Source of the DNA: Patescibacteria group bacterium
GTDB lineage: Bacteria; Patescibacteriota; Microgenomatia; UBA1406; GWC2-37-13
Assembly (NCBI GenBank): GCA_023380935.1
Contig: JAMCST010000008.1
Span: 1 to 42,520, forward strand
Reading direction: 5' to 3'
DNA length: 42,520 nucleotides
The notes beneath the pieces are model-generated. The model saw nothing but the letters and a program-made list of their open reading frames with translations. It was not told where the DNA came from and did no database searches. The position numbers and the translations under genes are program-made. Of the stretch, positions 721 through 30,900 are shown in pieces. Every line of letters begins with the position of its first letter. Positions within the stretch are counted from its first letter, which is position 1.

Positions 721-725
721 CTAGA

Positions 726-1574: not shown

Positions 1575-1580
1575 GGTTCT

Positions 1581-1586: not shown

Positions 1587-1638
1587 ACACAGTTTCACCC
1601 ACGACGCCATTGGTTTTCGTGGTACACTGGATAATAGA

Positions 1639-3118: not shown

Positions 3119-3156
3119 ATAGTAATCAGGGATTAAGAGATCAATCGTTAAAAGTT

Positions 3157-4185: not shown

Positions 4186-4268
4186 TTGGCTCCAAACCGA
4201 CACTTTTGTCGACTATAGTCCGTTGATTAACGGCGACAAACCCACTACCGTAAATAACGAAGATTAAT

Positions 4269-4934: not shown

Positions 4935-4962
4935 CCAATCGGGTCAAATCACGGTATGCCCT

Positions 4963-5757: not shown

Positions 5758-5764
5758 AACGTCT

Positions 5765-7362: not shown

Positions 7363-7371
7363 ATCGGTATC

Positions 7372-7400
7372 AATGTAACAGACGGAAAAAAATAAGTCAA
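7372..7400 (-). promoter_or_regulatory. Promoter of the PaaX-like gene
   Basis: On the minus strand TTGACT (7400-7395) is followed after 17 nt by TACATT (7377-7372), and the ATG comes 9 nt later. The predicted start of transcription leaves only two or three bases of leader. Confidence 0.6.
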
Positions 7401-7438
7401 GGGAAAATGAAACGGATTACGTGATTTGCGTTTTGTGT

Positions 7439-7444
7439 TATGAT
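7439..7444 (+). promoter_or_regulatory. Extended -10 box of the methyltransferase gene
   Basis: TGTTATGAT (TGn plus TATGAT) ends 8 nt before the ATG at 7453. No good -35 is visible, as is common with extended -10 promoters. It implies a nearly leaderless transcript. Confidence 0.5.
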
Positions 7445-7452
7445 AGACTACG

Positions 7453-8178
7453 ATGATCGCAAAACTGAAAAAGACCGGTTGGTTCATCAAATGTTTTATC
7501 AATCGCCACCTACTGCTCCCCTACTTAATCAAAACCAAACCGCGTCTGCACATCGGCTGCGGCGCGGTAAGATTGTCGCGATTTATCAATATTGACATCG
7601 TCGCGACGCCGGCCACGGATATTATTCACGACTGTAACGATCTATCATTTATCCCATCGCAATCAATTAAAATCATTTATGCCCACGCCTTTATCGAACA
7701 TCTTTTTCCCGACCAGGTGGATCGTCTTCTGGCAGAATTGAAACGAGTGTTAAGAAAAGACGGACTGATCATCTTCCTTGGCATTCCTGATTTCCGAACC
7801 ATCGCCCGGGCCTATTTGCTGAAAAAACCGGGACTGGTCGGGAAACGCTTTGATCTCTATCATGTTTACCGTTATACCCACGGCGCCGCGCATGAAGTGG
7901 CGCTCTGGCAGAACCAATTACACAAATCCCTGTACGATCGGAAAAAACTGAGAGAGCTGCTCGTACGGACAGGCTTCAAACCGGTGTTGATCTTCAACTA
8001 CCGCTACCAAAAAGAATATCTCCCGGTGAACCTCGGCTGCATCGCTTCTCTGCGCCAAATAAAATATAAGACAAAAAACAAGCCGGCGTTTTTATTCTTA
8101 AAAGGGAAGGATATCGGAAGAGTGAACCTCCAGGACACGGATGATGTTGTAAATTTTTTCCAAAGACGGATTAACTAG
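7453..8178 (+). CDS. SAM-dependent methyltransferase (class I, type 11-like)
   Basis: The 241-residue protein has a Rossmann-fold methyltransferase core: glycine motif RLHIGCGAVRL (motif I near 31-41), an acidic strand end NIDIV, the IHDCNDLSFIPSQSIKIIYAHAFIEHL region and the LKRVLRKDGLIIFLGIPDF segment (motif IV/post-IV). Such enzymes often act on sugars or lipid carriers in surface-glycan pathways, but no substrate can be named here. The last 81 nt overlap, in antisense, the 3' end of the XRE regulator gene, so the two genes converge and share coding DNA. Confidence 0.85.
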   Translation: MIAKLKKTGWFIKCFINRHLLLPYLIKTKPRLHIGCGAVRLSRFINIDIVATPATDIIHDCNDLSFIPSQSIKIIYAHAFIEHLFPDQVDRLLAELKRVLRKDGLIIFLGIPDFRTIARAYLLKKPGLVGKRFDLYHVYRYTHGAAHEVALWQNQLHKSLYDRKKLRELLVRTGFKPVLIFNYRYQKEYLPVNLGCIASLRQIKYKTKNKPAFLFLKGKDIGRVNLQDTDDVVNFFQRRIN

Positions 8179-8509: not shown

Positions 8510-9946
8510 ATGATTATGGTTTATAGACATATGCGTAAGGTTGCCGTATTCTGCGTTTCCCTACTAATCCTATCACCCATCTATCTGTCTATTAGTTTAA
8601 CCAGGCCCGTTTTGGCCGCCGGCGTTTTTCAGCAGGCTTACACCACACTAACCAACTCGCGTTTTTCCTACTACGGCTCGGTAAATACGGCCGTAGCGAC
8701 CGGCGGCAGCGACGTCGTCGTCAAGTCCAGCGGCGAGCCGGACAACGACACTAACAACTTGTTCAACGGCGATATCCTATGTTTTAACAACCCTGCCTCG
8801 ACTGGCTGCGCCAATCAAACCACTTATACTACCTCCAACGTGGTCGATTCGACTCATTTTTCCGTCAGCAGCGGCGTCACCGGCGGGCTGCAACCCGGTG
8901 ACCGAGTAGTTGCCAGCCAATCGGCGAGAATGGCCATTACTTTTCAACCCACCACCGTCGCCAACTTGAACCACATCAGAATCTACGTACCGGCTGCCTC
9001 ATCAAGTAGCGGCGACGGCATCCCCGACTCCGGTAAATTTGACGCCAATACTCTGGATACGGATATTGCGTCGGCCGGAGTGGTATCTTTGTCCTGTAGT
9101 GCCAGCTGTGCCGGCGCCGAGACCCTAACCTCACCAGCCTATTCCACCACCACCATTGCCGGACAGACCTATCATATGATTACCGCCACCACCGGCGGCA
9201 CCTGGAGCACTTCTAGAGTCTACACCGTTACCTTGGGTCATGCCTCAACCGTCACCGACCGGTTCATTAATCCGGCACCCTCCGGCACCTCCCACACCCG
9301 TGGCGTCGGAGATAAGCTAGTGGTGACGGTCCAAACCGAAAATTCTACCAACGACATCATCGAAAAGGCCGACACAGGTGTTACTGCTAACGACGGTGTA
9401 TTTGTCAGCGCCTATGTCCCGATCTCGGTCACCTGGACGATTAGCGGCATAGCCGCTTCCCAGTCGGTCTGTGGCACTACCACCTCTGTAGCGACAACCG
9501 CTACCTCGGTACCGTTTGGAACGATATATGCATCCGATACTTTCTTTGACGCCGCCCACTTACATACTATAACCACCAATGCACCAGGAGGATATGTACT
9601 GCAGGTGATGTCTGACGGCGACCCGAAAAAAAATGGTTCAACCCCAACCATCCCTTCAAATAGAACCAATAGCTGTGACGGTAGCTGCACTACTACTGTT
9701 ACCGGCACCTGGGCAACTGCAACTAACAGCGGCTTTGGCTATACGTTGTCCGGAACTAATGCCAGCTTTAGCTACACCTCCGGATATCGTCTGTTTGACT
9801 CCACCGGATTCCAAACCATTGGTTCTTACTCTTCGACGATTTCCAGCGACACTATTTATACCTGTTATCGTCTGTCAGTCAGCGGAACACAAACAGCTGG
9901 TTTATACTGGGATAAGATCACCTATCATGCTTATCCAAAATTTTAA
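8510..9946 (+). CDS. Secreted WxL-like surface protein (larger paralog)
   Basis: The 478-residue product has an N-terminal signal peptide (hydrophobic VAVFCVSLLILSPIYLSI, cleavage likely near VLAAG). The mature protein is Thr/Ser/Gly-rich and beta-strand-like, with cysteine pairs such as SCSASC and SCDGSC. From about residue 350 it shows the same landmarks as the 2270-3118 protein: NAPGGYVLQV, paired Cys, SGFGYTLSG, a YRLF segment and a terminal TQTAGLYWDKITYHAYPKF. It is followed 24 nt later by a DUF916-like anchored protein. Possible ATGs are at 8510, 8516 and 8531; the last gives the most compact signal peptide, but no ribosome-binding site decides between them. Exact function unknown; surface display is likely. 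Confidence 0.75.
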   Translation: MIMVYRHMRKVAVFCVSLLILSPIYLSISLTRPVLAAGVFQQAYTTLTNSRFSYYGSVNTAVATGGSDVVVKSSGEPDNDTNNLFNGDILCFNNPASTGCANQTTYTTSNVVDSTHFSVSSGVTGGLQPGDRVVASQSARMAITFQPTTVANLNHIRIYVPAASSSSGDGIPDSGKFDANTLDTDIASAGVVSLSCSASCAGAETLTSPAYSTTTIAGQTYHMITATTGGTWSTSRVYTVTLGHASTVTDRFINPAPSGTSHTRGVGDKLVVTVQTENSTNDIIEKADTGVTANDGVFVSAYVPISVTWTISGIAASQSVCGTTTSVATTATSVPFGTIYASDTFFDAAHLHTITTNAPGGYVLQVMSDGDPKKNGSTPTIPSNRTNSCDGSCTTTVTGTWATATNSGFGYTLSGTNASFSYTSGYRLFDSTGFQTIGSYSSTISSDTIYTCYRLSVSGTQTAGLYWDKITYHAYPKF

Positions 9947-13612: not shown

Positions 13613-16600
13613 ATGCAAAAAATTAGCAAAAATACCATTATCCGCTACTTAAAATATCTTCACGAACGTGGAGAATCTACCGATGTGGTCCTAAGAAAAC
13701 TCCGGTCTGTGGATAAGTTTTTTGCCTGGGCTCACGCGCGCGCATATATAAAAGAGGAACTATATAAGCAGACGAAACGGGAAATTGATAAGGCGATCAA
13801 TCATGAAATCAAAACTTATGAGGCTAAAATTAAAACGCAAAAGGCTGATTTTGATCCGGGCAGCCGTCAGGCCTTAGACAATTGGGGACTGCGTCATTAT
13901 CTGGGCATTGCCCTTACTCTTATCTTGATGGCCTTTCTTGGCGTCGGCGTCTATACGCGCTTTTTCCTTAAACCAACCCAACCGTTCGCCTATCCCGCCG
14001 TTCCCACCGGTCCGGGAACCACTGCCGGTACTTCACGGATCATCTCGTTTCAAGGCCGATTGACCGATAGCTTGGGAAATCCGATCACCGCCACCATAGG
14101 AGTTGAGTACCGATTTTATAACGCGGCTACCGGAGGTACGCTATTAACTTCACGTTTATGTAACGTCTCCCCTGATGTCGACGGCATATTTTCTAGCCTG
14201 ATCGGAGAAGACTGCGGCGCCGCTTTGCCCGCCAGCCTGTTTACCGAGAATCCGGACGTGTACCTTGCGGTAAAGATGCAATCAGAAGCATCCGAAATGA
14301 CACCGAGACAACACATCGCGAACGTAGGCTACGCCATGAATGCCGAAACTTTGCAGGGCTTGCCGGCGGGGACAGGCACGTCTTCCATTCCTTTTATCAA
14401 TAAAGATGGTAATCTGCTAGTGGCCGTGGCTAACCCAGGTATCCGTTCCACCTTCACCAGCGCCGCCTTTACCATTTCAAGCGCTTCTACAGCCACAGTT
14501 CAGTCAGCCGGCACGGGTGACGTTATTCTTCAGGCCACTGAAAGTGGAACGCTTAAATTCCGTACGGCCGGTGCTAATGACACCTATACACGCATGACTA
14601 TTGATAACTACGGCAATGTTGGGATTGGGACGACCGTACCAAATGCATTATTAGACGTTCGCGGCAAGCTGAAGGTCGCTGACGGCACTCAAGGCGCCGG
14701 CTACTTTCTCACCTCTGACGCTAATGGAGTGGCTTCGTGGGTCGACCAAAGCAGTGTTGCCGGACCCTGGACCTACTCCGGTGCGCCAAACTACTATCTT
14801 TATCCCGACGACTATACCAATGCCAAGGTCGGGATCGGCACCACCACCGCATCGAATCTCCTGACCGTCCACGATCCGACCGGTGCCGGCGGTACGCTGG
14901 TCAAAATCGATACCAGTGCTTCCGGCACGACCGGAGGTTATCTGGAACTGACTGCGGCCACCAGAACCGTCAGACTGGGAGCAGACAGCCTGATCGGACC
15001 GCATTTCGGCAGCACCACCACCGGTGGCTTGATGTTCTTGGATAATTTCTCCATCAGCCCGATGCTCGCGCTTTCACCAAACAACGGCAGCATCGATCTG
15101 GGAACCGGCAGTTACCGGTTCGGCACCCTCTACAACACCAACGCCAACGTCAGCACCGCTTTGGGAGTCGGGTACGACCCCTCTTCCCTTTCCGGCGGCG
15201 TGGCCGGTTTCAACGGCAACGTCGGGATCGGAACTAGTACGCCGGCCGGAAAACTTGACGTTAAGTCAACGCAAACGTCGGGAACGATCGCCCTGTTCGG
15301 CGCACCTTCCGCCGTCTCGATGGCCGGAACCCTGACCGGAGTCAACCTCGATCTTTCCACCAACTATACCGCCACCGGATACGGCGTTACCGGTCAGTCT
15401 ATCGCTCTGCCCGCCGTAACCAACACTGGAACGGGAACGTATGCTTACAAAGGATTAACTATCGCCGGAGGCAATCTGGTCCAAAACACCGGCGCCGGCA
15501 CCGATACCTGGACCGGGCTGGACATCACCATGCCACCTACCCTCACCCAAACTACCGGATCGGTAACGGCGACAGGATTGAAGATCACCGGCCCGACCTC
15601 GGTCACTGGAGCAACCCGCTACGGACTGATCGTTGACGCCAACGCCGGCAACGTCGGCATCGGTACCACTTCTCCAGGTCAGAAGCTGGATGTCCAGGGA
15701 GGAGTAAGACTGGGAGCGGCTCTGGGAACCAATGACATCTTGAATACTTCAGCGGCTGGAGGAGCACCCAGTGGTAGTCTGTACTGGGGATCAAGGATAG
15801 TCTGTGACAACAGCGGTAACTGTGCGGGAGTGGGATCATTACCGTTGTCCAGTATTACGGCTGCCACAGGTACCAATACCATAGACAGTGGTGCCTATGC
15901 CCAGACCTGGAACTGGAATAGTCTGGCATCAGGTAATGCCTTCACGTTAGGATCATCGTCAACTGCAGGAGCTGCCAGCGGTACCAGTACGGTACTAAAC
16001 ATCTCCCGCTCAGGAGCCAATGCCAATACTGCTCATACTGCCTATGGTCTCTACTCAACAGTTACCAATACCAATGTCACCTCAGGCACCAATGTGGCCG
16101 GGTACTTCTCGGCATCGGGAGCAACCACCGCCAACTACGCTCTCTACTCGGCCGCCGGAGTGAACTACTTTGGGGGGAATGTGGGGGTGGGAACCACCTC
16201 GCCTGGAGCTGCCCTTGATATTGCAGGGAGTCTTCTGGTGAATAACGGGGGAACAATTGACACAAGAGCTGCAGGAACATTAGCCATTGGGGGGGCAACA
16301 CAGACCGGACTGACCATGGGGAGATCAGGCGCTACCACTACCATTAATGGCTCATCGGTGATAGTAAATAGCTTAACCGGCATGATTAAGGGAACAACCG
16401 GGACATTGTCTGCTGTGACCGGAACAACTAATTATGCCGCTTACTGGAGTGACGCCAATACCATCGCCGCTGAACAATACCTGGCCACTTCCCGGGGAGG
16501 ACTGGGAGCCAATGTCACGGCGGCCGGAGCCGGAGAACTGCTCTATTCCAGCGGGACAACTGCCTACGGTCATCTGGCAGCCGGGACATCGGGACAGATA

Positions 16601-18691
16601 CTAAAAGCCGCCGGAGCTGCTTCTCCTACCTGGAATACACCCGGAGCCTTGACCAAAACAGATGATACCAACGTGACCCTTACCCTGGGCGGCTCTCCCA
16701 CCACCTCTTTAGTTAACGCCGCTTCCATTACGGTCGGATGGAGTGGTCAACTGGCCATTGCCCGGGGAGGCACCAACAGTACTGCCACTCCAACCGCCGG
16801 AGGAGTTGCCTACGGAACAGGAACCGCCTATGCCTTTACCGGTGCCGGAACCAGCGGACAATTCTTGATCTCCAACGGAGCAAGCGCTCCTTCATGGACC
16901 TCAACCGTACCTGCTACCTCAATGAAGTGGAATGCCTTGACCAATCCCGACGGTAACCTTTCCCTCTCTATGGGGGCATACACTTCAACCTTCACCTACA
17001 ATGCTGCCACCTCAACCAACAACCTGTTCAATCTGACAGATACGGCTTCCAATACCGGTACAGGTTACCTACTCAACGTTACCACTGCCACAGGATCTAC
17101 CCTCAAACCATTCCATGTGTCGGTCAAGGGAGGAACAGAAGCGTTGATGGTGGATGCCAATGGCAACGTCGGCATCGGGACGACAAGTCCTGGAGCTCCG
17201 CTTGAGGTAAGAAAGTCAACAAGTGGAACAGTGACAAAATTTTTATCATCTGCCAACGCTAACAACGCTGATTTTATCTTCTCTAGCGGAATTGCTGGTA
17301 ATGTTAATAGTGGCCAAGTAAATCTTTACCTCGCTGATCGGGAAAGCAATAAATGGGGAATTAGGATGAACTTTACTACTCCTAATTTAACCTTTGAAGA
17401 TATTGCGAACAGTAAAACACCGTTTACCATTGAGACTAATACTCCGTCGAACACTCTGTATTTAAAAAGCACGGGCAACGTCGGCATCGGGACGACAGGG
17501 CCGGGGAGTAAATTAGATGTTGTTGGGCAGATTAATATTGCGAATGCTGGCGGAGATGCTATTCATATTGGGAACAATCAATTTATTAAAATGGCCAATA
17601 CTGGTGGAACTCAAAAGTTGCTGCTCGGCATAAGTTCTAATGACGAAACATATCTTCGTGGAGCAACCGTATTGCATTTGCAAGCAAACGATGGCGGTCA
17701 AGAAGTCACAATATTAAATAGCGGCAACGTCGGCATCGGGACGACAGGACCAGGGTATAAGTTGGAGGTGGCTGGTGATATTTATACTAACTCAAGAATA
17801 GCGATTGGCACAGCTCCTGTGGGCGGCGCCGGCACATTAGTTACCAATAGTTATGCTTTAATTAGAGGTATTTATGCAGGGTACAATAGCACCACTTCTT
17901 TAGGGAACGTAAACGATGGTGAAATGATACAGTTTGGCGGAGCCTCAGCAACGGATTTGGTATTGAAAAAAAATAGCGGCAACGTCGGCATCGGGACGAC
18001 GGGACCAGGATATAAACTTGCGATTGGAGATTTTGTTGATGGTAATAATTATGCGATTTCGGTGCAAGCAGGAAATGGGGAAAAGGCCTCATTAAAATTA
18101 TTCGATTATTCCACAAACTACGGTTTTACTATTGAAAATGATGGTACTTTACCTGCAGGAGAGGGGGGATTAAATATTATTCGCCATAATAATAGCGCCG
18201 CAGGAATAAGTGCAGTGTATATAAATAGAACCAGCGGCAACGTCGGCATCGGGACGACGAACCCCCTGGCAAAACTTCATGTTGAAGGCAGTTGTGTCAC
18301 CGGTGATACTTTACTGCCGATCAGACGACGTCGCCGCAAGAAAAAAAACAATCCTGACACTGCTGGTGACCCCAACGACTGGGAATGGGAATATTTATAT
18401 TGCCGTATCGACGAAGTTTTACCAGGAGATGAAGTATTATCGCTTAATGAGTCCATCGGCCGCGTGGAGTGGCATCAGATCAAAAATCGCATGGATATGG
18501 GAGTACGGGATATTTATGAAATAGTCACCAAGACTGGCAGACACATAAAGACAACGAGCAACCATCCATATTTGGCATTAATAGAGAAACCAGGGAAAGA
18601 GGAACTTGCGATTAAAAATCCTGTCAATACCGGCAGCGGGATAAAAAATGTAGATTATAAACGATTGACAAATCAACCAAAATTTCCGTAA
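13613..18691 (+). CDS. Giant tail-fibre-like surface protein, N-terminal part ending in an N-intein
   Basis: The 1692-residue product begins with half of a Xer-type core-binding domain (about 1-50) and a charged linker. One membrane helix follows (about 97-119), so the rest should lie outside the cell. A head domain starts with SRIISFQGRLTDSLGNPITA (about 142-250). Then come about ten copies of the motif NVGIGTTSPxxKLxV separated by variable beta-rich cassettes. Residues 1-1560 form the extein, ending AKLHVEGS. Cys1561 opens an intein N-half (CVTGDTLLPI; TxxH in TTSNHPYLAL) and the frame stops 132 residues later. Cassettes at 15761-16172 and 16712-17034 recur exactly in the downstream gene. 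GC falls in the last cassettes (about 17200-18290). Confidence 0.88.
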   Translation: MQKISKNTIIRYLKYLHERGESTDVVLRKLRSVDKFFAWAHARAYIKEELYKQTKREIDKAINHEIKTYEAKIKTQKADFDPGSRQALDNWGLRHYLGIALTLILMAFLGVGVYTRFFLKPTQPFAYPAVPTGPGTTAGTSRIISFQGRLTDSLGNPITATIGVEYRFYNAATGGTLLTSRLCNVSPDVDGIFSSLIGEDCGAALPASLFTENPDVYLAVKMQSEASEMTPRQHIANVGYAMNAETLQGLPAGTGTSSIPFINKDGNLLVAVANPGIRSTFTSAAFTISSASTATVQSAGTGDVILQATESGTLKFRTAGANDTYTRMTIDNYGNVGIGTTVPNALLDVRGKLKVADGTQGAGYFLTSDANGVASWVDQSSVAGPWTYSGAPNYYLYPDDYTNAKVGIGTTTASNLLTVHDPTGAGGTLVKIDTSASGTTGGYLELTAATRTVRLGADSLIGPHFGSTTTGGLMFLDNFSISPMLALSPNNGSIDLGTGSYRFGTLYNTNANVSTALGVGYDPSSLSGGVAGFNGNVGIGTSTPAGKLDVKSTQTSGTIALFGAPSAVSMAGTLTGVNLDLSTNYTATGYGVTGQSIALPAVTNTGTGTYAYKGLTIAGGNLVQNTGAGTDTWTGLDITMPPTLTQTTGSVTATGLKITGPTSVTGATRYGLIVDANAGNVGIGTTSPGQKLDVQGGVRLGAALGTNDILNTSAAGGAPSGSLYWGSRIVCDNSGNCAGVGSLPLSSITAATGTNTIDSGAYAQTWNWNSLASGNAFTLGSSSTAGAASGTSTVLNISRSGANANTAHTAYGLYSTVTNTNVTSGTNVAGYFSASGATTANYALYSAAGVNYFGGNVGVGTTSPGAALDIAGSLLVNNGGTIDTRAAGTLAIGGATQTGLTMGRSGATTTINGSSVIVNSLTGMIKGTTGTLSAVTGTTNYAAYWSDANTIAAEQYLATSRGGLGANVTAAGAGELLYSSGTTAYGHLAAGTSGQILKAAGAASPTWNTPGALTKTDDTNVTLTLGGSPTTSLVNAASITVGWSGQLAIARGGTNSTATPTAGGVAYGTGTAYAFTGAGTSGQFLISNGASAPSWTSTVPATSMKWNALTNPDGNLSLSMGAYTSTFTYNAATSTNNLFNLTDTASNTGTGYLLNVTTATGSTLKPFHVSVKGGTEALMVDANGNVGIGTTSPGAPLEVRKSTSGTVTKFLSSANANNADFIFSSGIAGNVNSGQVNLYLADRESNKWGIRMNFTTPNLTFEDIANSKTPFTIETNTPSNTLYLKSTGNVGIGTTGPGSKLDVVGQINIANAGGDAIHIGNNQFIKMANTGGTQKLLLGISSNDETYLRGATVLHLQANDGGQEVTILNSGNVGIGTTGPGYKLEVAGDIYTNSRIAIGTAPVGGAGTLVTNSYALIRGIYAGYNSTTSLGNVNDGEMIQFGGASATDLVLKKNSGNVGIGTTGPGYKLAIGDFVDGNNYAISVQAGNGEKASLKLFDYSTNYGFTIENDGTLPAGEGGLNIIRHNNSAAGISAVYINRTSGNVGIGTTNPLAKLHVEGSCVTGDTLLPIRRRRRKKKNNPDTAGDPNDWEWEYLYCRIDEVLPGDEVLSLNESIGRVEWHQIKNRMDMGVRDIYEIVTKTGRHIKTTSNHPYLALIEKPGKEELAIKNPVNTGSGIKNVDYKRLTNQPKFP
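15761..16172 (+). repeat. 412-bp direct repeat, copy 1
   Basis: By eye this segment is identical to 22127-22538. The offset of 6366 bp is a multiple of three and both copies are in the same codon phase of their genes. Confidence 0.9.
16712..17034 (+). repeat. 323-bp direct repeat, copy 1
   Basis: By eye identical to 23012-23334 (offset 6300 bp, in frame). The 155 bp just upstream differ at about 25 positions but by only one amino acid. Confidence 0.88.
18293..18688 (+). other. N-terminal half of a split intein
   Basis: The 132-residue segment begins with the catalytic Cys in block A (CVTGDTLLPI). An Arg/Lys-rich insert follows, then YCRIDEVLPGDEVLSLNE, and block B TTSNHPYLAL with Thr88 and His91 of the intein. 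After block B come about 40 residues with no further intein motif, then a stop. The strand normally found after block B (W-xx-xx-LKVGxxIAV) is absent here and present at the start of the C-half. The Hint fold and motifs fit protein splicing rather than Hedgehog-type cleavage because a matching C-half with His-Asn-Thr follows. Confidence 0.9.
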
Positions 18692-18699: not shown

Positions 18700-20133
18700 A
18701 TGAAATCTTTAAAGAAATTTCTAAATAAAACCCTCACGCTTTTTGGAAGAAAAGCAAAAATCACACAAAATCGTGAGGAAACAGCTCCACCGAATCGTGA
18801 GGTAAAACCATCAAAATTAGTGATGGAATCCCTCGCCTGTCCTTATTGTTCCTCGACCGATTTCCAAAAACGCGGCTTCCGGCAGAAAAAGCTGGAGCGG
18901 GTACAACTTTATTTGTGCTTGTCCTGCAAAAAAACCTTCACTCCCCACTTAACCCGCGGCAAGCATTATCCGCTGGCGGTGATGTTGGATGCGGTCAGTA
19001 TATATAATTTGGGATATTCACTGGAGCAAACGTGCAGAATCGTAAATGAGCGTTCCAGTGCCGACCTTAATCGAAGTTGCAAACGAGTCCCGGCCGCCGT
19101 ATTGGAAAAAAGGGAGCGGGGCGTTCAACCATCTACCTTGTCAAACTGGCTTTCCGAAACCGCCGAACTCTGTCGTTTTGCCCGTATGCGCGAATATGCC
19201 ATGAAGAAATACCTACCTAAAGAAATGGTAATTCATGCCACCCTTGCCCATCGTCAACTGTATCGCTATCGCTTTCATCGTGCAAAGTGCGATCTTATGA
19301 TTAAAGAGGAATATCAACACCGCAAATTTTTGCCGCTCAAAGAGTTTTTAGAAATGATTCCTGTTGAGTGTCCGCATCAATATTTTCAAGAAGGATTAAG
19401 AGCGTCGGAGGCACCGTTGACATTTTCCAAAACTCAGATGATTGTTCGCGCAAAACAAAACTATGCCACCAAATTAGCGACATTCGTCCTGCAATCGGTC
19501 AAAGAAAGAAAAGGCCGCCATGAAGCCCTGCAAAAATTTATGTTGGTAAATGACAGCGTGACGGTGGCAACGGAAGTACCGGTGTATATTACCCGTGACG
19601 ACCTGGAGCATTTGAAAACTCAATTGGGATTTAAGATATATACCAAAAATTCAAATGATAAAATTCAAATGACAAATCAAATCTCAAATTCAAAACCCAA
19701 TAATCCCGCTGCCGGAATTAACCGAGATCTATCAGCAAAGTCCCTGCCGAAAACCTCCGCAACCACTGCGGAGGTTGGTATTGCCGATGTTGCATCCCTA
19801 CCAAAACTCATAACCGGCCATATTGACTTTATTCAAATTAGAAACGGCCAGATCCATATCCTTGACTATAAACCACGCGCGGAAAAAGAACGACCGATTG
19901 AACAACTAACTCTGTACGCAATGGCTTTATCCCGCCTAACCGGCTTAAGATTATACGAATTCAAATGCGCATGGTTTGACGAGAAAGATTATTTTGAATT
20001 TTATCCGCTGCACGTTCTGCACAAATCAAGGAAAACCAAGCGACGCAGAAAAGTGTACACGATGGAAGGAATTTATAGCGTAAATAAAGATGAAACGAAA
20101 ATTACTAATTTAAGGGCAAGTATGAAATTTTAA
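18700..20133 (+). CDS. Zinc-ribbon/HTH protein with C-terminal PD-(D/E)XK nuclease domain (candidate homing endonuclease)
   Basis: The 477-residue product starts 8 nt after the N-intein stop. It has a four-cysteine zinc ribbon (Cys47, Cys50, Cys73, Cys76) and a transposase-like HTH region (YSLEQTCRIVNE...VQPSTLSNWL, about 108-150). A C-terminal RecB/Cas4-type nuclease domain follows: GHIDF (Asp376), LDYK (Asp389, Lys391) and EQLTLYAMAL (Gln402, Tyr406), which match the D, (D/E)xK and QxxxY motifs. No DDE transposase catalytic core is visible. About 50 residues before the nuclease domain come from inserted repeats. Sitting inside a split intein, it is a good candidate for the homing nuclease; repair or mobile-element regulation are alternatives. 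Confidence 0.8.
   Translation: MKSLKKFLNKTLTLFGRKAKITQNREETAPPNREVKPSKLVMESLACPYCSSTDFQKRGFRQKKLERVQLYLCLSCKKTFTPHLTRGKHYPLAVMLDAVSIYNLGYSLEQTCRIVNERSSADLNRSCKRVPAAVLEKRERGVQPSTLSNWLSETAELCRFARMREYAMKKYLPKEMVIHATLAHRQLYRYRFHRAKCDLMIKEEYQHRKFLPLKEFLEMIPVECPHQYFQEGLRASEAPLTFSKTQMIVRAKQNYATKLATFVLQSVKERKGRHEALQKFMLVNDSVTVATEVPVYITRDDLEHLKTQLGFKIYTKNSNDKIQMTNQISNSKPNNPAAGINRDLSAKSLPKTSATTAEVGIADVASLPKLITGHIDFIQIRNGQIHILDYKPRAEKERPIEQLTLYAMALSRLTGLRLYEFKCAWFDEKDYFEFYPLHVLHKSRKTKRRRKVYTMEGIYSVNKDETKITNLRASMKF
19644..19703 (+). repeat. AT-rich dispersed repeat inserted in frame in the nuclease gene
   Basis: Tandem AAATTCAAATGA-type units encode the low-complexity run NSNDKIQMTNQISNSKPNN between the central region and the nuclease domain. 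Such strings are usually intergenic in these genomes; here the frame stays open. Confidence 0.55.
19752..19776. repeat. 10-bp hairpin repeat inside the nuclease gene
   Basis: AACCTCCGCA and its exact complement TGCGGAGGTT are separated by 5 nt. It is GC-rich in an AT-rich gene and lies next to the AT-rich repeat, in a stretch (PKTSATTAEVGIAD) that looks like linker. It resembles a small REP-type or palindromic insertion. Confidence 0.55.
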
Positions 20134-20187: not shown

Positions 20188-20541
20188 ATGACAAACATAT
20201 ACGATTTAGAAGAAAGAACTACGATATTTTCCGAACGACTAATTGATTTTTATAAGAAATGTCCTAGAAATATCATCACCATTCCTCTCATTGACCAAGG
20301 GTTACGAGCGGGAACCAGTATTGGAGCTAATTATATGGAAGCAAATGGGGCATCAAGCAAAAAAGACTTTAAAAACAAAATCTTTATCTGTAAAAAGGAA
20401 GGCAAGGAAACTATGTATTGGCTTCGGCTTACGGCACGAGTAATAGATGAGGAAAATCTTAAAGAAGAATGTAGATTTTTATGGAAAGAAACACATGAGT
20501 TAACTTTAATATTTTCTAAAATCGCCTCTAAAACCAAATAG
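20188..20541 (+). CDS. Four-helix-bundle protein (TIGR02436-type), copy 1
   Basis: The 117-residue protein matches the common short four-helix-bundle family: it opens YDLEERTTIFSERLIDFYKK and contains IDQGLRAGTSIGANYMEA, SSKKDFKNKIFICKKEGKET and a final HELTLIFSKI helix. Members are found as intervening-sequence proteins in 23S rRNA genes and, in related form (Avd), as accessory proteins of diversity-generating retroelements. Neither a reverse transcriptase nor an rRNA gene is near. Placement inside a split-intein module is unusual. The function of the family is unknown; nucleic-acid binding is suspected. Confidence 0.88.
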   Translation: MTNIYDLEERTTIFSERLIDFYKKCPRNIITIPLIDQGLRAGTSIGANYMEANGASSKKDFKNKIFICKKEGKETMYWLRLTARVIDEENLKEECRFLWKETHELTLIFSKIASKTK

Positions 20542-20606: not shown

Positions 20607-20996
20607 ATGAACTATTATCCAAAACGACCGGTAAAGAGTTTTCAGGATTTGGAAGTGTATCAAAAAGCTTTGGCTATCTGTGTCGCTGTTGTCAAAAAAA
20701 TACCGGCGCAAGAGGAACTGCATCAATGCATCGTCGCTCTCCCCCGCCTCATTGCGACTGCTCATTCTCTGCGCTTTTCCGATCAGCAAAAAGCGATTGA
20801 TATTTTGGAAGACGCTATGCTTAAATGTAATTTAAGCGTGGTCTATCTTGACCAGTATCGCGACATTGACAATAAAGAGATAGAAATTGAATTCTTTGAG
20901 AAACAAATTAAAGATTTACTGTCGCTGCGGATAAAAATCATGCATCTACAACGGTCGTGGAGAAAGTTTTTTCAAACAAAAATCTATGAAAAATAA
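20607..20996 (+). CDS. Four-helix-bundle protein (TIGR02436-like), copy 2
   Basis: The 129-residue protein begins with the phrase SFQDLEVYQKALAICVAVVKK, the usual opening of this family. It then follows an all-helical pattern with LHQCIVALPRLIATAHSLRF in place of the typical antibiotic-like GAxSIxANI segment, so it is a divergent member. It lies between copy 1 and the NYN gene and overlaps the latter by 11 nt, which suggests co-translation. The pair, one typical and one divergent, may form a hetero-oligomer; that is an inference only. Confidence 0.75.
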   Translation: MNYYPKRPVKSFQDLEVYQKALAICVAVVKKIPAQEELHQCIVALPRLIATAHSLRFSDQQKAIDILEDAMLKCNLSVVYLDQYRDIDNKEIEIEFFEKQIKDLLSLRIKIMHLQRSWRKFFQTKIYEK

Positions 20997-21579
20997 AAAA
21001 AGAGTCACTTATGCTTTTATTGATGCCACTAATATCATTTATGGAACTGGTGGCGCTGGTTGGAAAGTTGATTTTAAAAAATTAATAAGTTATTTAAAGG
21101 GCCGCTATCAAGCGCTAAAAGTATTATATTACGGCGGTGTTGATTCAAACAATCAAAAACAGCTAAATTTTTATAAAAAACTTAAATCTTTCGGTTATGA
21201 ATTAAGGCTCGTTCCGGTTAAAACATTTAAAGACGGAAAGAAGAAAGCGGATGTTGATTCAAGAATGACTTTTGAAATTATGTTGTTATTAAACCAATAT
21301 AATAATGCTATTTTTATGACAGGAGATGGCGATTTCTTCTGGGTATTTGAATATTTAATACAAACAAAAATAAATGTTAAATTAATAGCTAATTCTAGAT
21401 CAACCGCCAGAGAATTAAAGCAACTATTCAAACAACATTTTACTGATTTACAGCTTTTAAGACATTTGGTTGCTAAAAAAAATGAGGTAGACGCCTTTGT
21501 GGAATCTACCTCTCGGGGTTATGGAAAAAGTATATCACGAGTTAAAAATTCTGTCAAGAAGAAAAATAATAATGTTTGA
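20986..21579 (+). CDS. NYN-domain (PIN-like, LabA/DUF88-type) putative nuclease
   Basis: The 197-residue protein has the acidic motifs of NYN domains: AFIDATN (Asp13, Asn16) at the first strand, KKKADVDSRMTFEIML (Asp89, Asp91) and FMTGDGDFFWV (Asp114, Asp116). These residues bind metal in PIN-like RNases, so it is probably an active ribonuclease or nuclease. A Ser/Lys-rich tail follows. The stop codon overlaps the start of the C-intein gene within ATGTTTGA, so this gene and the downstream giant gene are translationally coupled. NYN proteins act in RNA processing; a role inside an intein module is not established. Confidence 0.88.
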   Translation: MKNKKRVTYAFIDATNIIYGTGGAGWKVDFKKLISYLKGRYQALKVLYYGGVDSNNQKQLNFYKKLKSFGYELRLVPVKTFKDGKKKADVDSRMTFEIMLLLNQYNNAIFMTGDGDFFWVFEYLIQTKINVKLIANSRSTARELKQLFKQHFTDLQLLRHLVAKKNEVDAFVESTSRGYGKSISRVKNSVKKKNNNV

Positions 21580-21985
21580 CGCGTTAGCCAATTACATCAG
21601 CGAGGTTGTCCGCGGTAAAAAAATCCGCATCGGTGGGCAGGATGCCCAGTGGAAAAAAGTGGTCGATATAAAAGTAGGAATGAAGATTGCGGTGACAAAA
21701 CAAAATTCGAACATTATTTCTGATTTCGGATTTAGTGCTTCGGATTCTGATGTAGAGTGGGATGAAATTGTCTCCATCAAGCGGTTATCGCCCGAGCGCG
21801 TCTATGATATCGAAGTCGAAGATACACACAATTTCGTCGCCGGGCATTTTATAGATTTGCCTTCCGGCAACGAGACAATTTTGACCGATGAACCGCAACG
21901 CGGACCACCCACAAATAATTTTAAAATTAAAAATTTAAAATTAAAAATCGGCCAGAAATGGTTTGGTGGTATTATTGCTCATAAT
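21572..21985 (+). other. C-terminal half of a split intein
   Basis: The 138-residue segment has WKKVVDIKVGMKIAV (residues 27-41, a strand usually encoded in the N-half), VEWDEIVSIKRL, block F VYDIEVEDTHNFVAG (Asp79, His86) and block G GIIAHN with penultimate His137 and terminal Asn138, followed by Thr as the +1 residue. About 42 residues, including repeat-encoded NFKIKNLKLKIG, are inserted between blocks F and G where only a few are normal. Confidence 0.9.
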
Positions 21986-24900
21986 ACATATGCGGCGATA
22001 TTTAATGGCGGCAACGTCGGCATCGGTACCACTTCTCCTGCTGCCAAGCTGGAAGTCTACCAGGGAGGAGTCAAGCTGGGATCAACGGCAGGGGCGAATA
22101 ACATTCTCGATACAGCCTCATCTGGTGGAGCACCCAGTGGTAGTCTGTACTGGGGATCAAGGATAGTCTGTGACAACAGCGGTAACTGTGCGGGAGTGGG
22201 ATCATTACCGTTGTCCAGTATTACGGCTGCCACAGGTACCAATACCATAGACAGTGGTGCCTATGCCCAGACCTGGAACTGGAATAGTCTGGCATCAGGT
22301 AATGCCTTCACGTTAGGATCATCGTCAACTGCAGGAGCTGCCAGCGGTACCAGTACGGTACTAAACATCTCCCGCTCAGGAGCCAATGCCAATACTGCTC
22401 ATACTGCCTATGGTCTCTACTCAACAGTTACCAATACCAATGTCACCTCAGGCACCAATGTGGCCGGGTACTTCTCGGCATCGGGAGCAACCACCGCCAA
22501 CTACGCTCTCTACTCGGCCGCCGGAGTGAACTACTTTGCTGGGAATGTGGGAGTGGGGACGACTTCCCCATCCTCCTACACTCTTCAAGTTGTAGGCACA
22601 GGAGGATTTAGCACGTCCGTTAATTCTCCCCTTTTTCAAGGCCAAGGAGCAGCGGTGACATTGGGGAATGCGTCGTATACGACCAGCGTCACCGGCTCAA
22701 CCGTATACGTCAGTCCTTTAACCACTAACGGAGTGGTATATACGTCGGGAAGCAACGGTGCATTAAACAGCGAACAATATCTCGCCACTTCCCGGGGAGG
22801 ACTGGGAGCCAATGTCACGGCGGCCGGAGCCGGAGAACTGCTCTATTCCAGCGGGACAACCGCCTATGGCCATCTGGCAGCCGGGACCAGTGGGCAGATA
22901 CTAAAAGCGGCCGGAGCCGCTTCTCCGACCTGGAATACGCCCGGAGCTTTAACCAAGACCGATGATACGAACGTAACCCTTACCTTAGGCGGTTCTCCCA
23001 CCACTGCCCTGGTTAACGCCGCTTCCATTACGGTCGGATGGAGTGGTCAACTGGCCATTGCCCGGGGAGGCACCAACAGTACTGCCACTCCAACCGCCGG
23101 AGGAGTTGCCTACGGAACAGGAACCGCCTATGCCTTTACCGGTGCCGGAACCAGCGGACAATTCTTGATCTCCAACGGAGCAAGCGCTCCTTCATGGACC
23201 TCAACCGTACCTGCTACCTCAATGAAGTGGAATGCCTTGACCAATCCCGACGGTAACCTTTCCCTCTCTATGGGGGCATACACTTCAACCTTCACCTACA
23301 ATGCTGCCACCTCAACCAACAACCTGTTCAATCTTACCGATACGGCTTCCAATACCGGTACAGGATATTTACTTAATGTTACTACTGCTTCCTCTTCCAC
23401 TCTTCATCCTCTTCATGTCTCTGCTGCCGGGACAGAGGCACTCATGGTTGATACCAATGGATATGTGGGGATTGGGACGACGAGTGCGAGTTATCCTCTA
23501 GATGTAAATGGAACAATCAAAACAAATACTGGCTTGCGCATCGTGGAAACCAGTGCAGCCGAAAGGTCTATTGTTAACTACAACACTATAAATGGCGGTT
23601 GGTATATGGGTAATACCACAGATGGACGTTTCTTTTTGGATGGTATGACTTCGGGGGGAGCATACGAAAGAACCTTACTCACTCAAGTATCGCATAGTTT
23701 AAGCGATATGTATTTTACTGGTAATCTTGGCATCGGTACCACAACTCCAGGAGCAAAGCTGGAGGTTTCGGGAACTGCAATTATCTCAGGAACAGGAACA
23801 GCCTTAACACTGTCAGGAGCAGCCACAACAGCCATCAACATCTCCAATACCGGGGTTACTACCGATATTAATCTTCAAAATGGAGCAACAATTGATAATG
23901 ATGTTAGTGGTAGTATCAGACTTGGTTCAACCACTCTTACCCTAAATGGCACCACCACTCTTACCGCTTCCTCTTTAGCTACCTTTACCAGTGCAGCCAC
24001 TCTGGGAATGACCAGTACTACTACTCTTAATCTTGGCACCAACGCCACCTTGACCAACAACTCGGGAACACTGACGGTCAATGCCAACAGTACAAGCAAC
24101 CTTCTGCTCAACAGTAACGGCGGCAATGTGGGGATTGGGACGACGGGGCCGGGGGCGAAGTTGGAAGTATTTGGAAATAGCCCAAGCATCAAGATTACGG
24201 AAGATTCTAGTTCTAGTTATTATTTACAAACACAGGTTAACTATAACGCCGCTGATTCTGTCAACTTTATTGGACCCTATGGCGCCACCTTTTTGCAATT
24301 TGACGCAACAACAAATACTCCCACAACGCTTGGGACAACGAGTGGATACACAATATTACAAGGTAACGTCGGCGTCGGGACGACCAGTCCGGCGGCGAAA
24401 TTGGATGTTAATGGCGATATAACAGCCGAAGGCAACTTTATCTCAAGTACTTTTGTCCAAGGCATGCCCACCAATCTTATTGTGAACGGCGGATTTGAAA
24501 CTGATCTGGGGGGATGGTCGGCTAATTTAGCCACAATTACACAACAAGCAGGCGGATACTACGGCGGTTACTCGATGAAGGCTGTTTACAGCGGTTCTGG
24601 CGACAATTACATTTCCTACACATTGCCCACAGTAGCCCAAACACTTGCCAGTCGAAGTTACACGTTTTCTTTCTGGGCAAAAGCTGATTTAGCCGGGAGT
24701 TTTTCATCTGCACCTTTTCTTCAAGAGTTAGGTGGAGGCACTTATGCCTGTAATCTTTCCGATACTGCGCTTACCACGTCTTGGAAGAAATTTAAAGCTA
24801 CATGCACTTGGGGAGCCGGCATTACAGCGACAACATGGAGGGTCATTCTAAGAACAACCGGAAACGTGAGTAATAATGTTTACTTCGACGGCGTTAATGT

Positions 24901-27900
24901 GCAAAACGGCACAACCGGTACTGATTACACAAATATTGCCGCGAACGATACGGGAAACACATATTTATATGATGGCAACGTCGGCATCGGCACCACTTCC
25001 CCATCGAACAAGCTTGACGTTAGGGGGGCAACCGGAACAAGGGCAGCTTACTTTGATGGCAGAGTCAGAGGAGAAAATGCTTCTTCTTCTGATGAATTCG
25101 TTACCCTGGCTCAACTTCAGGGAGGATCAGGATCATTGTGGTTGGATGGTGGAACATACCTGTATCCTAACTCGACATACGCCACTGACGTCATGGTGCC
25201 GTCAGGTAATGTGGGGATTGGGACAAATGCACCAGAGACTTCGTTAACTATCAAAAATACAGGATATCGACAACTTGCTATTAGGGGTGGAGCCACAGGC
25301 CACCAAACATTGAACTTAGGTAGTGTAGAGAGTACTGTCGGTTCATACATTTACAATAACGCTTATTATGCGACCTCCAATACTTATACTCCTTCACAAA
25401 CCAGTGCGTCTGGCATGCAGTTAAGGAACGATGGTTCTATTGATCTATTGACTGATACCGGATTGTCGATTGGAGTTAACTATACTCCAACTTCAAGAAT
25501 AAAAATTCTTAATAACGGCAACGTCGGCATCGGGACGACGGGACCAGCGCATAAACTCGAGGTAACGGGTGGGATATATGCTTCCACCTATTTAGATGTC
25601 GGAGGAAACAACTGGTTAAGACTGGGGGGAAGCAATGCTCTTTCGAATAACAGTAACTTTTTGTATATCGGTGACGGTTCAAGTCTTGCCAGCGGCATTT
25701 ATGCCCGCGCCACCTATAAAGCAGCTAGTGGATATAATGTTATTCCTTATACCACGCTTGGTTCTGACTTAGGCGACTCTTCGCATTATTGGGGAAACTC
25801 ATATATTCAAAACGGGTATTTTTCCGGCAATGTCGGTATCGGGACGACGACGACGGCAGCAAAGTTGGATATTCCTAGTGGCGGAATCATCGCCGGCACA
25901 ACGGGTGCTAATGGTAGTCAGTTTTATGCGATTGGCCTAACAAGAACAGCGGGAGCGATGTTATATGATCAAGCCAATTCTGCATTAACGCTAGGGGGTG
26001 ATTCTACTGGATCTGATATGACAATCTTGGCAAATGGCAACGTCGGGATTGGGACGACGAGTCCAGGGGCGAAGTTGGAATTAACCTCCGGGGATCTATA
26101 TATCAACGCCAACGGTACTGCCAACGTTGGCCTTCCTTATTTGAAAAACTCCACAAGCTTTGGCTCCAGTAGGAACAACTATTTAATCTCCATGGGAGGC
26201 ACTTTAGCCGGTAGGCTACTTAACCGAAATGCAGAGATGCTCGACGGCACTATCGGCTATGCCCTATATGATAACTCTGGCGGCGGACACACCACTATTT
26301 CTTCCGTAGCTGATTCTCAAGCTCCAAACACTTCAGGCAGTGTCCTTCGTCTCTCTTATGATGGACTAGGCACCCCTAGCTCTAATCCGACTCCTGGATT
26401 CGGTGGATTTAATATAGCGGTTGCTCGATGTTCGGGAACAAATAATGGCATTAACGGATTTTGCTACCGAGAAGGCAATCGCTATTTTATTAGAATCTGG
26501 GCAAAAATTCCGTCGGGAAGAAGTATTTATTTCGCTTCAAACTCTTATGGGACAGGTGGAAATTTTCAGTGGGAGTCATCACAAGCCGGAGCAGATGATT
26601 GGCGCGAATATGACGGAATCCAAACCATTGGGATTGGCGGAACATTTTCATCCACCGGCTTCTGGTATGTCAGCGGCGGAACCAATGCGGCTTTTAACTG
26701 GGATGTAGCTAGTGTGCAGATGGTTGGTCTTGATGAAACACCCAGTGTCGAAACTGCAAGCAATCTTAACGTTGGTTATTATCAGGGAAAAAACCTCAAT
26801 TATGGGGAACTTTTGACGACCCAGGGGGCATATCTGGCCGCATCGGGCGGCAACGTCGGCATCGGGACGACGGCGCCGGGACAAAAGTTGGAAGTGGCCG
26901 GCAATGTTATCGGAAGCGGGACGGTGGGCACCAGCGCCTCGCGCTGGAGTTCGGGATATTTTGATTCGTTGACAGTTACCGGCAGCATCTATGCCGCCGG
27001 CACCAACATCGCCGGAACCACCGCCAATGATTTTACCATTAACACGGACAACGCCACGGCCGATGCCGAAGCAATGAGCTTAACTTTTGAGAGAGGGACA
27101 ACCACTCCCAACTCCACTCTGGCTTGGGACAATACCAACGATACGTTCGATTTTAATTTCCCCATTTCGGTCGAAAACGCCGGTATTAGCTATATTCAAG
27201 GTAACGTCGGCATCGGTACCACCGCCCCGGGAACCTACAAGCTTTACGTTGCCGGAACAGGAAAGTTCACCGGAGCAGTTGATACTGACGTTCAGTTCTT
27301 GGGTCAAGCATCAGACACTGTCTCGGCTCCTTCCTTCTCCTGGACTGGTGATACAACTACCGGTATGTATCGTCCTGCCGCCAGCCAGATTGCTTTAACC
27401 CTGGGAGGAACCCAAAGGGCTCTGTTCACCGCAACCGCCTTGACGCTTACCGGACAAACAACATTGACCGCCTCTTCTCTTTCCACTCTCACGACAGGAG
27501 CGACACTGGGAATGACCAGCACCACCACCTTAAACTTAGGCACCAACGCTACCTTGACGAACAACTCTGGCACCTTAACTGTCAATGCCAACAGTACCAG
27601 TAACCTCCTCCTTAATACCAATGGAGGGAATGTGGGGATTGGGACGACGAGTGCAGGAACTCGACTTGACGTGGTCGGCGGAGCCATCCGCACCAACAAT
27701 CAACTAATCTCTACGGTTGCCACCGGCACCTCGCCGCTGGCGGTTTCGTCGACTACTGTCGTTACTAACCTTAACGCCGATATGGTCGATGGACTGCACT
27801 CCACATCACTAGTACAAACCGGCGGGTCCCTCTTAACTCTGGCCGGAGATTCGGGCAGCGTAGCGGTTAACCAAGGTAACACCCTGACCGTGGCCGGCGG

Positions 27901-30900
27901 ATCAGGTTTAACCTCCACGGCTGCGGCCGGCCCGACCGTCACTCTTAATGTCGGCGCCGGCACCAACATTCAGGTCAACGCCAACGACGTGGCCACGGTA
28001 ATGAACCCGTCATTTACCACGTCCGTAACCACACCATATTACTATGTCACAGCTGGAAACGGATACGGAGTCGGATACTGGGCCTCTGCCCCAACCACAT
28101 ATGGAACCTTTATGAGCAACTCGGCAAGCTATATGTACGGTGATGTAACTGATTATTATATTGCCAATGTTATGTCGAGTGGAACTGGCCGTGGATTTAC
28201 CTGGTCGTATGGAACCACTCCCAGCATGGGCCTGAATGCCAGCACCGGAAACCTGGCAATCAAAGGTCTGTTTACGGCTAATGGATCAGGTAACAATTAT
28301 TTTGCCGGCAACGTCGGCATCGGGACGACCGCACCTGATACTCAATTAGAGGTCACCGGGTCTATCGATACCTATGCCAACAGCAATCGATACTACTACA
28401 ATGTCTATCAATACTCCGATTCCGGCAACCCTGATACCGGAACATTAGCCATCGCCATGCCCCGAGGTTGGACAAGCACAATGATGAGGGCCCATATAGT
28501 CGGTTATGATTACAGCGGGCTTGGTACTTGGGAAGTAATCGTCGGGGGTTACAACTATTCCGGCACGCCGGCCTGGATAAATTATACTGCCGAAGTACGA
28601 GGCACGGCGCCTTTTAATCAAGTCCGGTTGGCCTACAACGGCAGCAAGATGGTAATCCTATTGGGAACTACTACTACGACGTGGCGTTATCCCAAATTTG
28701 CCGTGACGGAATTCATGGCCGGGTTCGGCAGTTATTCTGGTTGGGGTAGTGGCTGGTCTTCCTCATTCCTCACTTCTGAAGCTAGTATTACCAATTCGGT
28801 TACACCTACTCTTTATACCTACATGGATTCGGGCGGAAACGTCGGTATCGGGACCACCGGGCCGAGCTACAAACTGGATGTTGCCGGCGACGTAAGGGCT
28901 ACCGGCGATTTATATGCCAACGGAACAGATGTTTTTGGCGCCAACTCTATGTCACTTAATCTTGGCACATCAGCTAACTTGATCGGTTTTAAGGATTCCA
29001 CCGGTTACAACCGTATTACAATTGATACCGCCCAAACCAGTTATCCAAGAATTTATGGCTATACCAATGCTGGGGCCGCCACTTTAGTTCAGTTCACATC
29101 GGGCATTTTTAATAACGGTGGTACGCTTTATTCCCAAAACCAAATTTACGCGCGTGGTGGAATTGCCAATGACACTGCTTCAACCGCTCTTTCTCTTAAT
29201 GACGCCGAAGGTGTAATCTTTGCCGGTCCAATCTCCGGCATCAGCACCATCACTACTTCCAGTACTATTAACAGCCAAACGATTTCCTCGGCGGCCAGTT
29301 TTACCGGCACGTTAGCCGTTGCCAGTGATTTGACCGTTACCGGCGGAGATATTAAACAAGGCGGCTCCGACGACCTGCGGCTTTGGGCCGGCACCGGCGG
29401 AGATGTTTGGTTTTACAAATCCGATGGCACGGCGGCCGGCCGGGTCGACACCTCGGTTGCCAGCGGTTCGGGTACCGATGTCCAAGACGCCAATTATTTG
29501 ACTGGTGATGATGCTAATTACACTGTTTTTTACGGCAACAGCACCTCTAGCGCTTGGAATTCACAGAGTTTCACCACCGGCGGAACCGGCGGGTCTTTAT
29601 CAAAGATCAATTTTAAACTATGGCGTAACGAAACTTCATATAGTTATAGTGTCTGGACCGAAATTCAAACCTGCACTGGCGATACCCCGACCGGCGTGGT
29701 GTTGGGAACGTCCGACGTGGTTGCATCTTCATCAATTAGTTCGACCAGTCCGGGAGCAGCTGTTACTTTTACCTTCAGTAATCGACCGTACCTGAACTCA
29801 AGTACCAAATACTGTGCGGTTTTGAAAACTACCACGCCATCCGACGGTACCCATTATATCAACATGCGTGTCGACAGCACTAGTTCTTCCTATTCTGGCG
29901 GACAGCTTTGCCGCACTACCAATTCCGGTCAGACTTGGGACTGTGGCTCGTATACTGCGGTCGATGCCTATTTTGATGAATATTATAATAACCGTTACGG
30001 GACCTTGTATATCGGCGCAGTCAACACCAGTTCAGCGGACTTGGCGGAAAAGTATCCGTCCGTGCAAGATTTATTAGCGGGTGAAGTCGTTGCCTTTGAC
30101 CCGCAAAACGAAAATCACGTTATCCGCTCCACCCAGGCTTACGAAAAGAACCTGATGGGTGTCGTTTCCACCGACCCCGGTTTGTTGCTTGGCGCGCCTG
30201 ACGGAAGCGGCGACAAGCAGTATCCGGTGGCCCTTTCCGGCCGGGTGCCGGTCAAGTTCAGCGCGGAAAACGGTAACGTGGTGGTCGGCGATCCGCTTAC
30301 CAGCTCGGCCACCAAACCGGGCTATGCCATGCGCGCCACCCAGCCCGGATTGATTATTGCCAAGGCCCTGGAGTCGTCGCAAAAATGTGCCCAAACTTCC
30401 GATTGCAAAATAAACGCCTTTATCGCCCTTAAATATGACGAACCACAGATGATGCTGGCAGACAGCGGTGATGTTGTTATTTTGGAAAACACCAACTCTG
30501 GTTCACCCGATCAAGGCAACTCATCTTACTCCATTGCCACGGCCGCCGGTGAAACCATCACCCGTGTCGGTGCCTTTGCCCGGCTAACCGCGGCCAACCT
30601 GGAAACCGGCGCCGTCAAAGCCAAAACCGTTACGACCGATTCGTTGAATGTGGGCGGACAAACGTTGAGAGAATTTGTTACGAACGTTGTAAATGAAACC
30701 ATTGCCCGAAGCAACACGATTATCAACGGAACAATCGATAAACTGATCGTCCGTGAAAAGACCATCTCCCCGATCGTCGAGACGACCGATCTGGTCGCCA
30801 GCGGCTCGGCCGACATTGCCCAATTGCAGACCAATGAAATTAAACCGAAAAATAACGCTTTAACGATTGATTTGTCAAATGTAGGGGACGGATCCCCCGT

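What the first reader, a model, noticed from the sequence alone, without database searches (positions are those of the whole stretch)
18700..20133. Zinc-ribbon/HTH plus PD-(D/E)XK protein as a candidate new homing endonuclease
Split-intein loci known so far carry Vsr-like or GIY-YIG/HNH endonucleases between the halves. Here the gene at that place has a four-Cys zinc ribbon, an HTH region and a RecB/Cas4-like nuclease core with D376, D389-x-K391 and QxxxY. DNA recognition by the ribbon/HTH and cleavage by the PD-(D/E)XK domain would suit homing into the repeat gene.
Basis: partly seen in the sequence, partly recalled or inferred. Interest (0 to 1): 0.85.

Follow-up and report, generated by a model that had tools for sequence, protein, structure and literature searches.

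The report
Two-gene nuclease module in giant genes
A DNA-cutting enzyme and a small partner protein sit together inside, or just behind, giant surface-fibre genes across the Patescibacteria (often inside a self-splicing split intein), which makes them a probable new type of gene-invading endonuclease, though cutting and homing have not been tested.

Summary
The 477-aa gene at 18700-20133 has a four-Cys IS1-type zinc ribbon, a helical HTH-like region and a RecB/Cas4-type PD-(D/E)XK core. D376, D389 and K391 are invariant in 38 aligned homologs. It lies between the halves of a complete split intein in a giant fibre gene. Of 38 Patescibacteria loci, 15 lie in this split intein family, but 21 lie 3' of an (apparent) giant fibre gene and 2 are unresolved. 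The constant partners are the giant gene and a four-helix protein (20607-20996), present in 35 of 35 assessable loci; the intein is optional. The two contexts interchange on the tree, and both genes are under strong purifying selection. An empty intein site and a same-genus locus without the pair exist, and so do inteins without the nuclease. Best explanation: a two-gene homing-type module specialised for giant fibre genes (confidence 0.5); cleavage is untested. Unexpectedly, the GNVGIGT repeat is written with one exact 18-mer in 77% of copies at q-bearing loci, against 11% in q-less Microgenomatia and 3% in viral contigs; further copies, in both orientations, sit inside the module's genes. 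This is a candidate DNA target, but the motif also occurs in q-less genomes.

The parts
13613..18691 (+). N-half of giant fibre gene (GNVGIGTT repeats, XerD/SAM-like N-terminus, TM-like helix) ending in intein-N
   Evidence: tail-fibre PHROG 2e-11
18293..18691 (+). split intein N part: C1 (TGT at 18293), block B TTSNHPYL, stop
18700..20133 (+). q: Zn ribbon / HTH-like / PD-(D/E)XK nuclease, candidate homing-type endonuclease
20188..20541 (+). 23S-IVP four-helix-bundle protein (variable cargo)
   Evidence: PF05635 6e-13; TIGR02436
20607..20996 (+). ivp2: conserved partner of q, four-helix bundle of the S23/IVP/Avd fold, no family match
   Evidence: follows q in 35 of 35 assessable loci; fold hits 2rld, 2gsc
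20986..21579 (+). NYN-domain RNase (variable cargo)
   Evidence: PF01936 5e-22
21572..21985 (+). split intein C part, from ATG overlapping the NYN stop to HN; first C-extein residue Thr at 21986
21986..32131 (+). C-extein: rest of the giant fibre gene
17164..17182 (+). first of five exact copies of the DNA motif CAACGTCGGCATCGGGACG just upstream of the intein (copies start at 17164, 17476, 17725, 17980, 18238)
18236..18259 (+). 24-bp motif copy GGCAACGTCGGCATCGGGACGACG, ending 33 nt before the intein insertion point

Best explanation
q (18700-20133) and ivp2 (20607-20996) form a two-gene mobile nuclease module specialised for giant fibre genes of Patescibacteria. q probably makes a site-directed DNA break in giant-gene DNA that lacks the module, and recombination repair copies the module in, as in homing; ivp2 would be its DNA-binding or assembly partner. 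The module takes up one of two addresses: the endonuclease slot of a trans-splicing split intein inside the giant gene, where splicing hides it, or the spacer just behind the giant gene. Shown: gene content, predicted fold, conserved active site, partner linkage, both addresses and switching between them, selection, empty alleles. Inferred: the cleavage, its target, the role of ivp2, trans-splicing and homing itself.
For: 38 homologs with invariant D376/D389/K391. ivp2 follows q in every Patescibacteria locus with enough sequence, often overlapping by 4 nt, and their distances correlate (Mantel r 0.85). 10 loci have both intein halves around q and 5 more have one half at a contig end, with q between blocks B and F, the classical endonuclease slot; in L028 q is fused in frame to intein-N. 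Intein and 3'-adjacent contexts interleave on the q tree, with at least 6 changes forced by well-supported branches. Sporadic presence: 6 of 374 Microgenomatia genomes, one of them with a fragmented copy. Orthologous locus with the pair (G040/L011) and without it (G052/L403) within one genus. Empty intein site in G180 aligned through the L008 junction, 67% identity. omega 0.04-0.21 for q and 0.035-0.18 for ivp2 in the pairs where dS is measurable.
Against: No cleavage or homing assay. The same intein family spreads without q: contiguous inteins, and a split intein without q in G236. 23 of 38 loci are not seen in an intein. In three related loci (L037, L041, L044) the module sits upstream of the same GAPDH gene, looking resident rather than mobile. 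The nuclease domain is nearest to RecB/AddB/Cas4 nucleases, not to I-Ssp6803I-type homing enzymes. Host phylogeny was not compared with the q tree, so horizontal transfer is not proven.
Confidence: 0.5

Rival explanations
1. Resident diversification system: q/ivp2 bind or cut the bipartite DNA motif CAAYNTCGGCANNGGGACG, repeated along the giant gene, to drive recombination between repeats and vary the fibre. The cassette stays because it helps the host.
For: Exact 18-mer in 86 of 111 GNVGIGT codings at q-bearing loci (24 of 25 loci) against 102 of 893 in q-less Microgenomatia and 6 of 176 in viral contigs. All 11 copies within 1 kb upstream of q are exact, and exactness falls with distance. 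30 copies inside q and ivp2 genes in both orientations and several frames against 0.01 expected; none off-frame or reversed in 11 q-less giant loci. In G402 the giant gene next to the (broken) q has 7 of 9 exact, the other 1 of 10 (test). Strong purifying selection and a shared locus in Taylorbacteria relatives.
Against: 33 of 161 q-less Microgenomatia genomes with the repeat also have the exact 18-mer, including single-contig genomes such as G118 and G098. q+ G040 has no exact 18-mer. Binding was not tested; another protein could read the motif. A repeat-cutting nuclease would endanger its own chromosome.
Confidence: 0.25
2. Passenger in a hotspot: the giant-gene 3' end and the split-intein gap are tolerated landing sites for many small selfish or toxin-like genes (IVP, NYN, MazF-like, GIY-YIG, REP-transposase-like), and q/ivp2 is one of them with an unrelated nuclease job.
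For: Varied cargo at these places; q broken with a GIY-YIG-like ORF between its pieces in G402.
Against: Only the q-ivp2 pair is constant; 36 of 38 Patescibacteria loci are in or behind such a gene.
Confidence: 0.17
3. A Cas4/RecB-like defence or repair nuclease that happens to carry a transposase-type zinc ribbon.
For: Weak PADLOC match to a Cas4-like nuclease model, E 8.5e-5; AddAB/RecB/Cas4 fold hits.
Against: No helicase, Cas or Argonaute partner seen at the locus; constant link to giant fibre genes instead.
Confidence: 0.08

Closest known systems
Fractured genes: split inteins with an endonuclease gene between the halves (Dassa et al. 2009, NAR 37:2560; paper not held here, cited through PMC10448857)
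   Same: A gene broken by a split intein with a free-standing nuclease gene between the halves.
   Different: From memory those nucleases are Vsr-like (EDxHD family) in metabolic genes; here a RecB/Cas4-type PD-(D/E)XK with a transposase zinc ribbon and a four-helix partner, in bacterial giant fibre genes, and also found without an intein.
PD-(D/E)XK homing endonuclease I-Ssp6803I (family listed in PMC3943268)
   Same: Homing enzyme built on a PD-(D/E)XK core.
   Different: A group I intron enzyme; no zinc ribbon or partner gene known to me; not among the sequence or fold hits here.
RecB/AddB/Cas4 nuclease family (PF12705)
   Same: GxxD, DxK and QxxxY motifs and predicted fold.
   Different: No helicase; joined to an IS1-type zinc ribbon and a conserved middle region.
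IS1/IS1595 transposases
   Same: N-terminal zinc ribbon.
   Different: No match beyond residue 116; PD-(D/E)XK domain instead of the DDE domain.
LAGLIDADG homing endonucleases in CPR rRNA genes (I-ShaI, PMC11270868)
   Same: Homing endonucleases in the same phylum.
   Different: Different fold, host gene and splicing element.
23S-IVP family and Avd protein of diversity-generating retroelements
   Same: Four-helix fold of ivp2 (2rld, 2gsc; Avd 4dwl only weakly).
   Different: No RT at the locus; the genome's DGR, with its own Avd-like gene, is on another contig and shares no match with this window.

Membership tests
PD-(D/E)XK nuclease superfamily (RecB/Cas4 type) | Family profile match | tested here: met
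   PF12705 24.9 bits against cut-off 22
PD-(D/E)XK nuclease superfamily (RecB/Cas4 type) | Catalytic D, D-x-K and QxxxY conserved across homologs | tested here: met
   D376, D389, K391 invariant; Q402, Y406 at least 90%
PD-(D/E)XK nuclease superfamily (RecB/Cas4 type) | Core fold | tested here: inconclusive
   AF2 strands 288-298, 370-381, 384-390, helix 400-414 fit; nearest solved folds are AddAB/RecB/Cas4, but best E is only 4e-3 and TM over the full chain is low
Homing endonuclease | Gene inside a self-splicing element or next to its target | tested here: met
   15 of 38 in split inteins, 21 of 38 behind an (apparent) giant fibre gene
Homing endonuclease | Empty alleles exist | tested here: met
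   Intein site: G180 against L008; module: G052 against G040/L011
Homing endonuclease | Horizontal spread incongruent with host | not tested
   No host tree was built; many loci are short MAG contigs
Homing endonuclease | Site-specific cleavage of the empty allele only | not testable with these tools
   Needs protein and DNA
Split intein (fractured gene) | Splicing motifs with C1, TxxH, HN and a nucleophile at +1 | tested here: met
   C1, T and H of block B, HN and Thr+1 invariant in the aligned halves
Split intein (fractured gene) | Protein trans-splicing | not testable with these tools
   Needs expression
Diversity-generating retroelement | RT and TR/VR pair at the locus | tested here: not met
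   RT only on contig C9; no match between the C9 region and the window
IS1 family transposase | Full-length family match including the catalytic domain | tested here: not met
   Only residues 47-116 match NF033558, 23.4 bits against cut-off 100

The most novel reading that the evidence does not exclude
The q-ivp2 pair reads the bipartite DNA site CAAYNTCGGCANNGGGACG, which is kept almost letter for letter inside the coding repeats of giant fibre genes and is scattered off-frame through the module's own genes, and uses it to steer recombination: a programmed system that edits giant surface-fibre genes, with split inteins as one of its vehicles.
Probability: 0.17. Interest if true: 0.88.

Novelty: new variant of a known kind. 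Interest (0 to 1): 0.62.

Why it matters
If right, it adds a nuclease family with an obligate-looking partner to the few known to live in split inteins, and shows a free-standing and an intein-borne form of the same family, which bears on how mobile inteins gain and lose endonucleases. It ties this to the giant fibre genes of Patescibacteria, whose function is poorly understood, and the DNA-level motif gives a directly testable binding site.

Tried and rejected
DGR reading of the four-helix partner: rejected, no RT at the locus, and the genome's own DGR is on another contig. Phage origin: no q relative in phage records by tblastn, nor in viral contigs by the pattern scan. Motif as wholly q-dependent: rejected, exact copies occur in q-less genomes. 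Motif as a mere protein repeat: rejected, off-frame and reversed copies in q and ivp2 genes. Literature library: no paper with the motif peptide or nucleotides, nor with split inteins in Patescibacteria. My split of motif copies into two classes failed (the filter put all 152 in one class), so its pooled consensus is not used for the claim. The motif distance trend ignores shared ancestry and its p-value should be read loosely.

Full report
The gene and its domains. The ORF at 18700-20133 encodes 477 aa; it is called q here. Residues 47-81 are an IS1/IS1595-type zinc ribbon, followed by a helical, HTH-like stretch; the C-terminal part matches PDDEXK_1. In an alignment of 38 homologs D376, D389 and K391 are invariant, Q402 and Y406 at least 90% conserved, and a middle region (about 160-310) is conserved too, with H184, Q186, H193, K196, H226 and N254 invariant. 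The AlphaFold2 model is closest, weakly, to AddAB, RecBCD and Cas4-type nucleases; viral models give the same family.

The intein. The N-half of the giant gene ends in intein-N (Cys1 at 18293, block B TTSNHPYL, stop at 18691) and the C-half begins with intein-C (ATG 21572 to HN at 21985, then Thr). Aligned halves from other loci keep the splicing residues. q occupies the endonuclease slot between blocks B and F.

Homologs. A scan of one genome per species gave 37 further Patescibacteria loci and a few distant ones; with the window that makes 38. In 10, both intein halves flank q (window, L008, L009, L010, L014, L016, L022, L023, L028, L045). In 5, one half is seen and the contig ends (L013, L017, L018, L035, L036). 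In 19, q follows an upstream fibre-like ORF directly or after small genes (L011, L012, L015, L019, L021, L024-L027, L029, L032-L034, L038-L042, L044); L019's upstream gene itself carries an intein C-half. In 2 the fibre gene lies within about 4 kb (L020, L037). Two are unresolved (L030, L031). Of ten upstream ORFs scanned, seven carry Peptidase_S74 or a surface Ig-like domain; L012, L024 and L038 had no domain match, and their assignment rests on repeat motifs or on sequence character and neighbours. In all, 15 are in inteins and 23 are not seen in one.

The partner. An ivp2 homolog follows q in 35 of 35 loci where the contig reaches far enough (one, L035, only by a weak match); three contigs end too early. 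It has no family match but is predicted as a four-helix bundle like S23/IVP proteins. The IVP gene at 20188 and the NYN gene at 20986 are variable cargo.

Evolution. Intein and 3' contexts interleave on the q tree, with at least six changes forced by starred branches. dN/dS is far below 1 for both genes in the pairs where dS is measurable. q is present in 6 of 374 Microgenomatia genomes, one of them (G402) with a fragmented copy. An uninterrupted version of the L008 insertion site exists in G180. In one genus, G040 (L011) has IVP-q-ivp2 between the giant gene and a ComEC-like gene, and G052 (L403) does not. The intein family occurs without q, usually contiguous, once split (G236).

The DNA motif. 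In q-bearing loci the repeat GNVGIGT is written with the exact 18-mer AACGTCGGCATCGGGACG in 86 of 111 cases, in 24 of 25 loci from many lineages. Beyond the block, conservation falls to what the peptide explains (which was conditioned on a 12-mer core), and synonymous sites in q are saturated or nearly so between most related loci compared. In q-less Microgenomatia the fraction is 102 of 893, in a sample of viral contigs 6 of 176. Per genome, 6 of 9 q+ against 38 of 187 q- have it (p 0.005; counts combined by hand, with broken q copies counted as q+). Within q loci, copies within 2 kb upstream of q are nearly all exact (35 of 38). A relaxed bipartite form also occurs 30 times inside q and ivp2 genes, in both orientations and several frames (0.01 expected from shuffles; reversed-pattern control 0), and never off-frame or reversed in 172 kb of 11 q-less giant loci. 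By eye, the positions that vary among the off-type copies are those that the peptide fixes in the repeats, as expected of a protein-binding site; this is inference. Several off-type copies are preceded by a small hairpin (GCC-AAA-GGC and variants, by eye), so a REP-like element is another reading.

What is shown and what is not. Shown: sequence, conservation, linkage, contexts, selection, empty alleles, DNA-level conservation of the motif. Not shown: cleavage, binding, trans-splicing, homing, horizontal transfer. Bias: q-bearing loci were drawn from all classes, the q-less comparison mainly from one class; several q loci are short MAG contigs, so an intein half may be missed.

Noticed in passing
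window 15646-17188 and 22009-23485: Long intragenic duplication (about 90-93% identity, in two blocks) with copies about 6.3 kb apart on either side of the intein/q cassette.
   Followed up: partly
L418 (G000:C9:15000-26000): A diversity-generating retroelement in the same genome: Avd-like gene 4224-4574, TR 4630-4747, RT 4917-6113, VR 9021-9137 at the end of another gene; all six TR/VR differences are at template adenines.
   Followed up: yes
window, between intein blocks F and G, just before 21985: An extra segment of about 40 aa between blocks F and G, shared with L008 (DEPxRGPP...WFGG) and, in other forms, L019 and L036; unusual for inteins.
   Followed up: no
window 13613-13900: The giant protein starts with a weak XerD/SAM-like match before a TM-like helix; other giant proteins seem to start with HTH-like segments (by eye).
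   Followed up: no
L409 (G402:C45) 6303-7824: q broken into pieces with a GIY-YIG-like ORF between them.
   Followed up: partly
L413 (G236:C10) 2-6803: Split intein of this family with a four-helix gene but no q between the halves.
   Followed up: partly
viral contigs L138-L217: The exact 18-mer of the fibre repeat also occurs in at least 120 IMG/VR stretches, though it is a small fraction of GNVGIGT codings there.
   Followed up: partly
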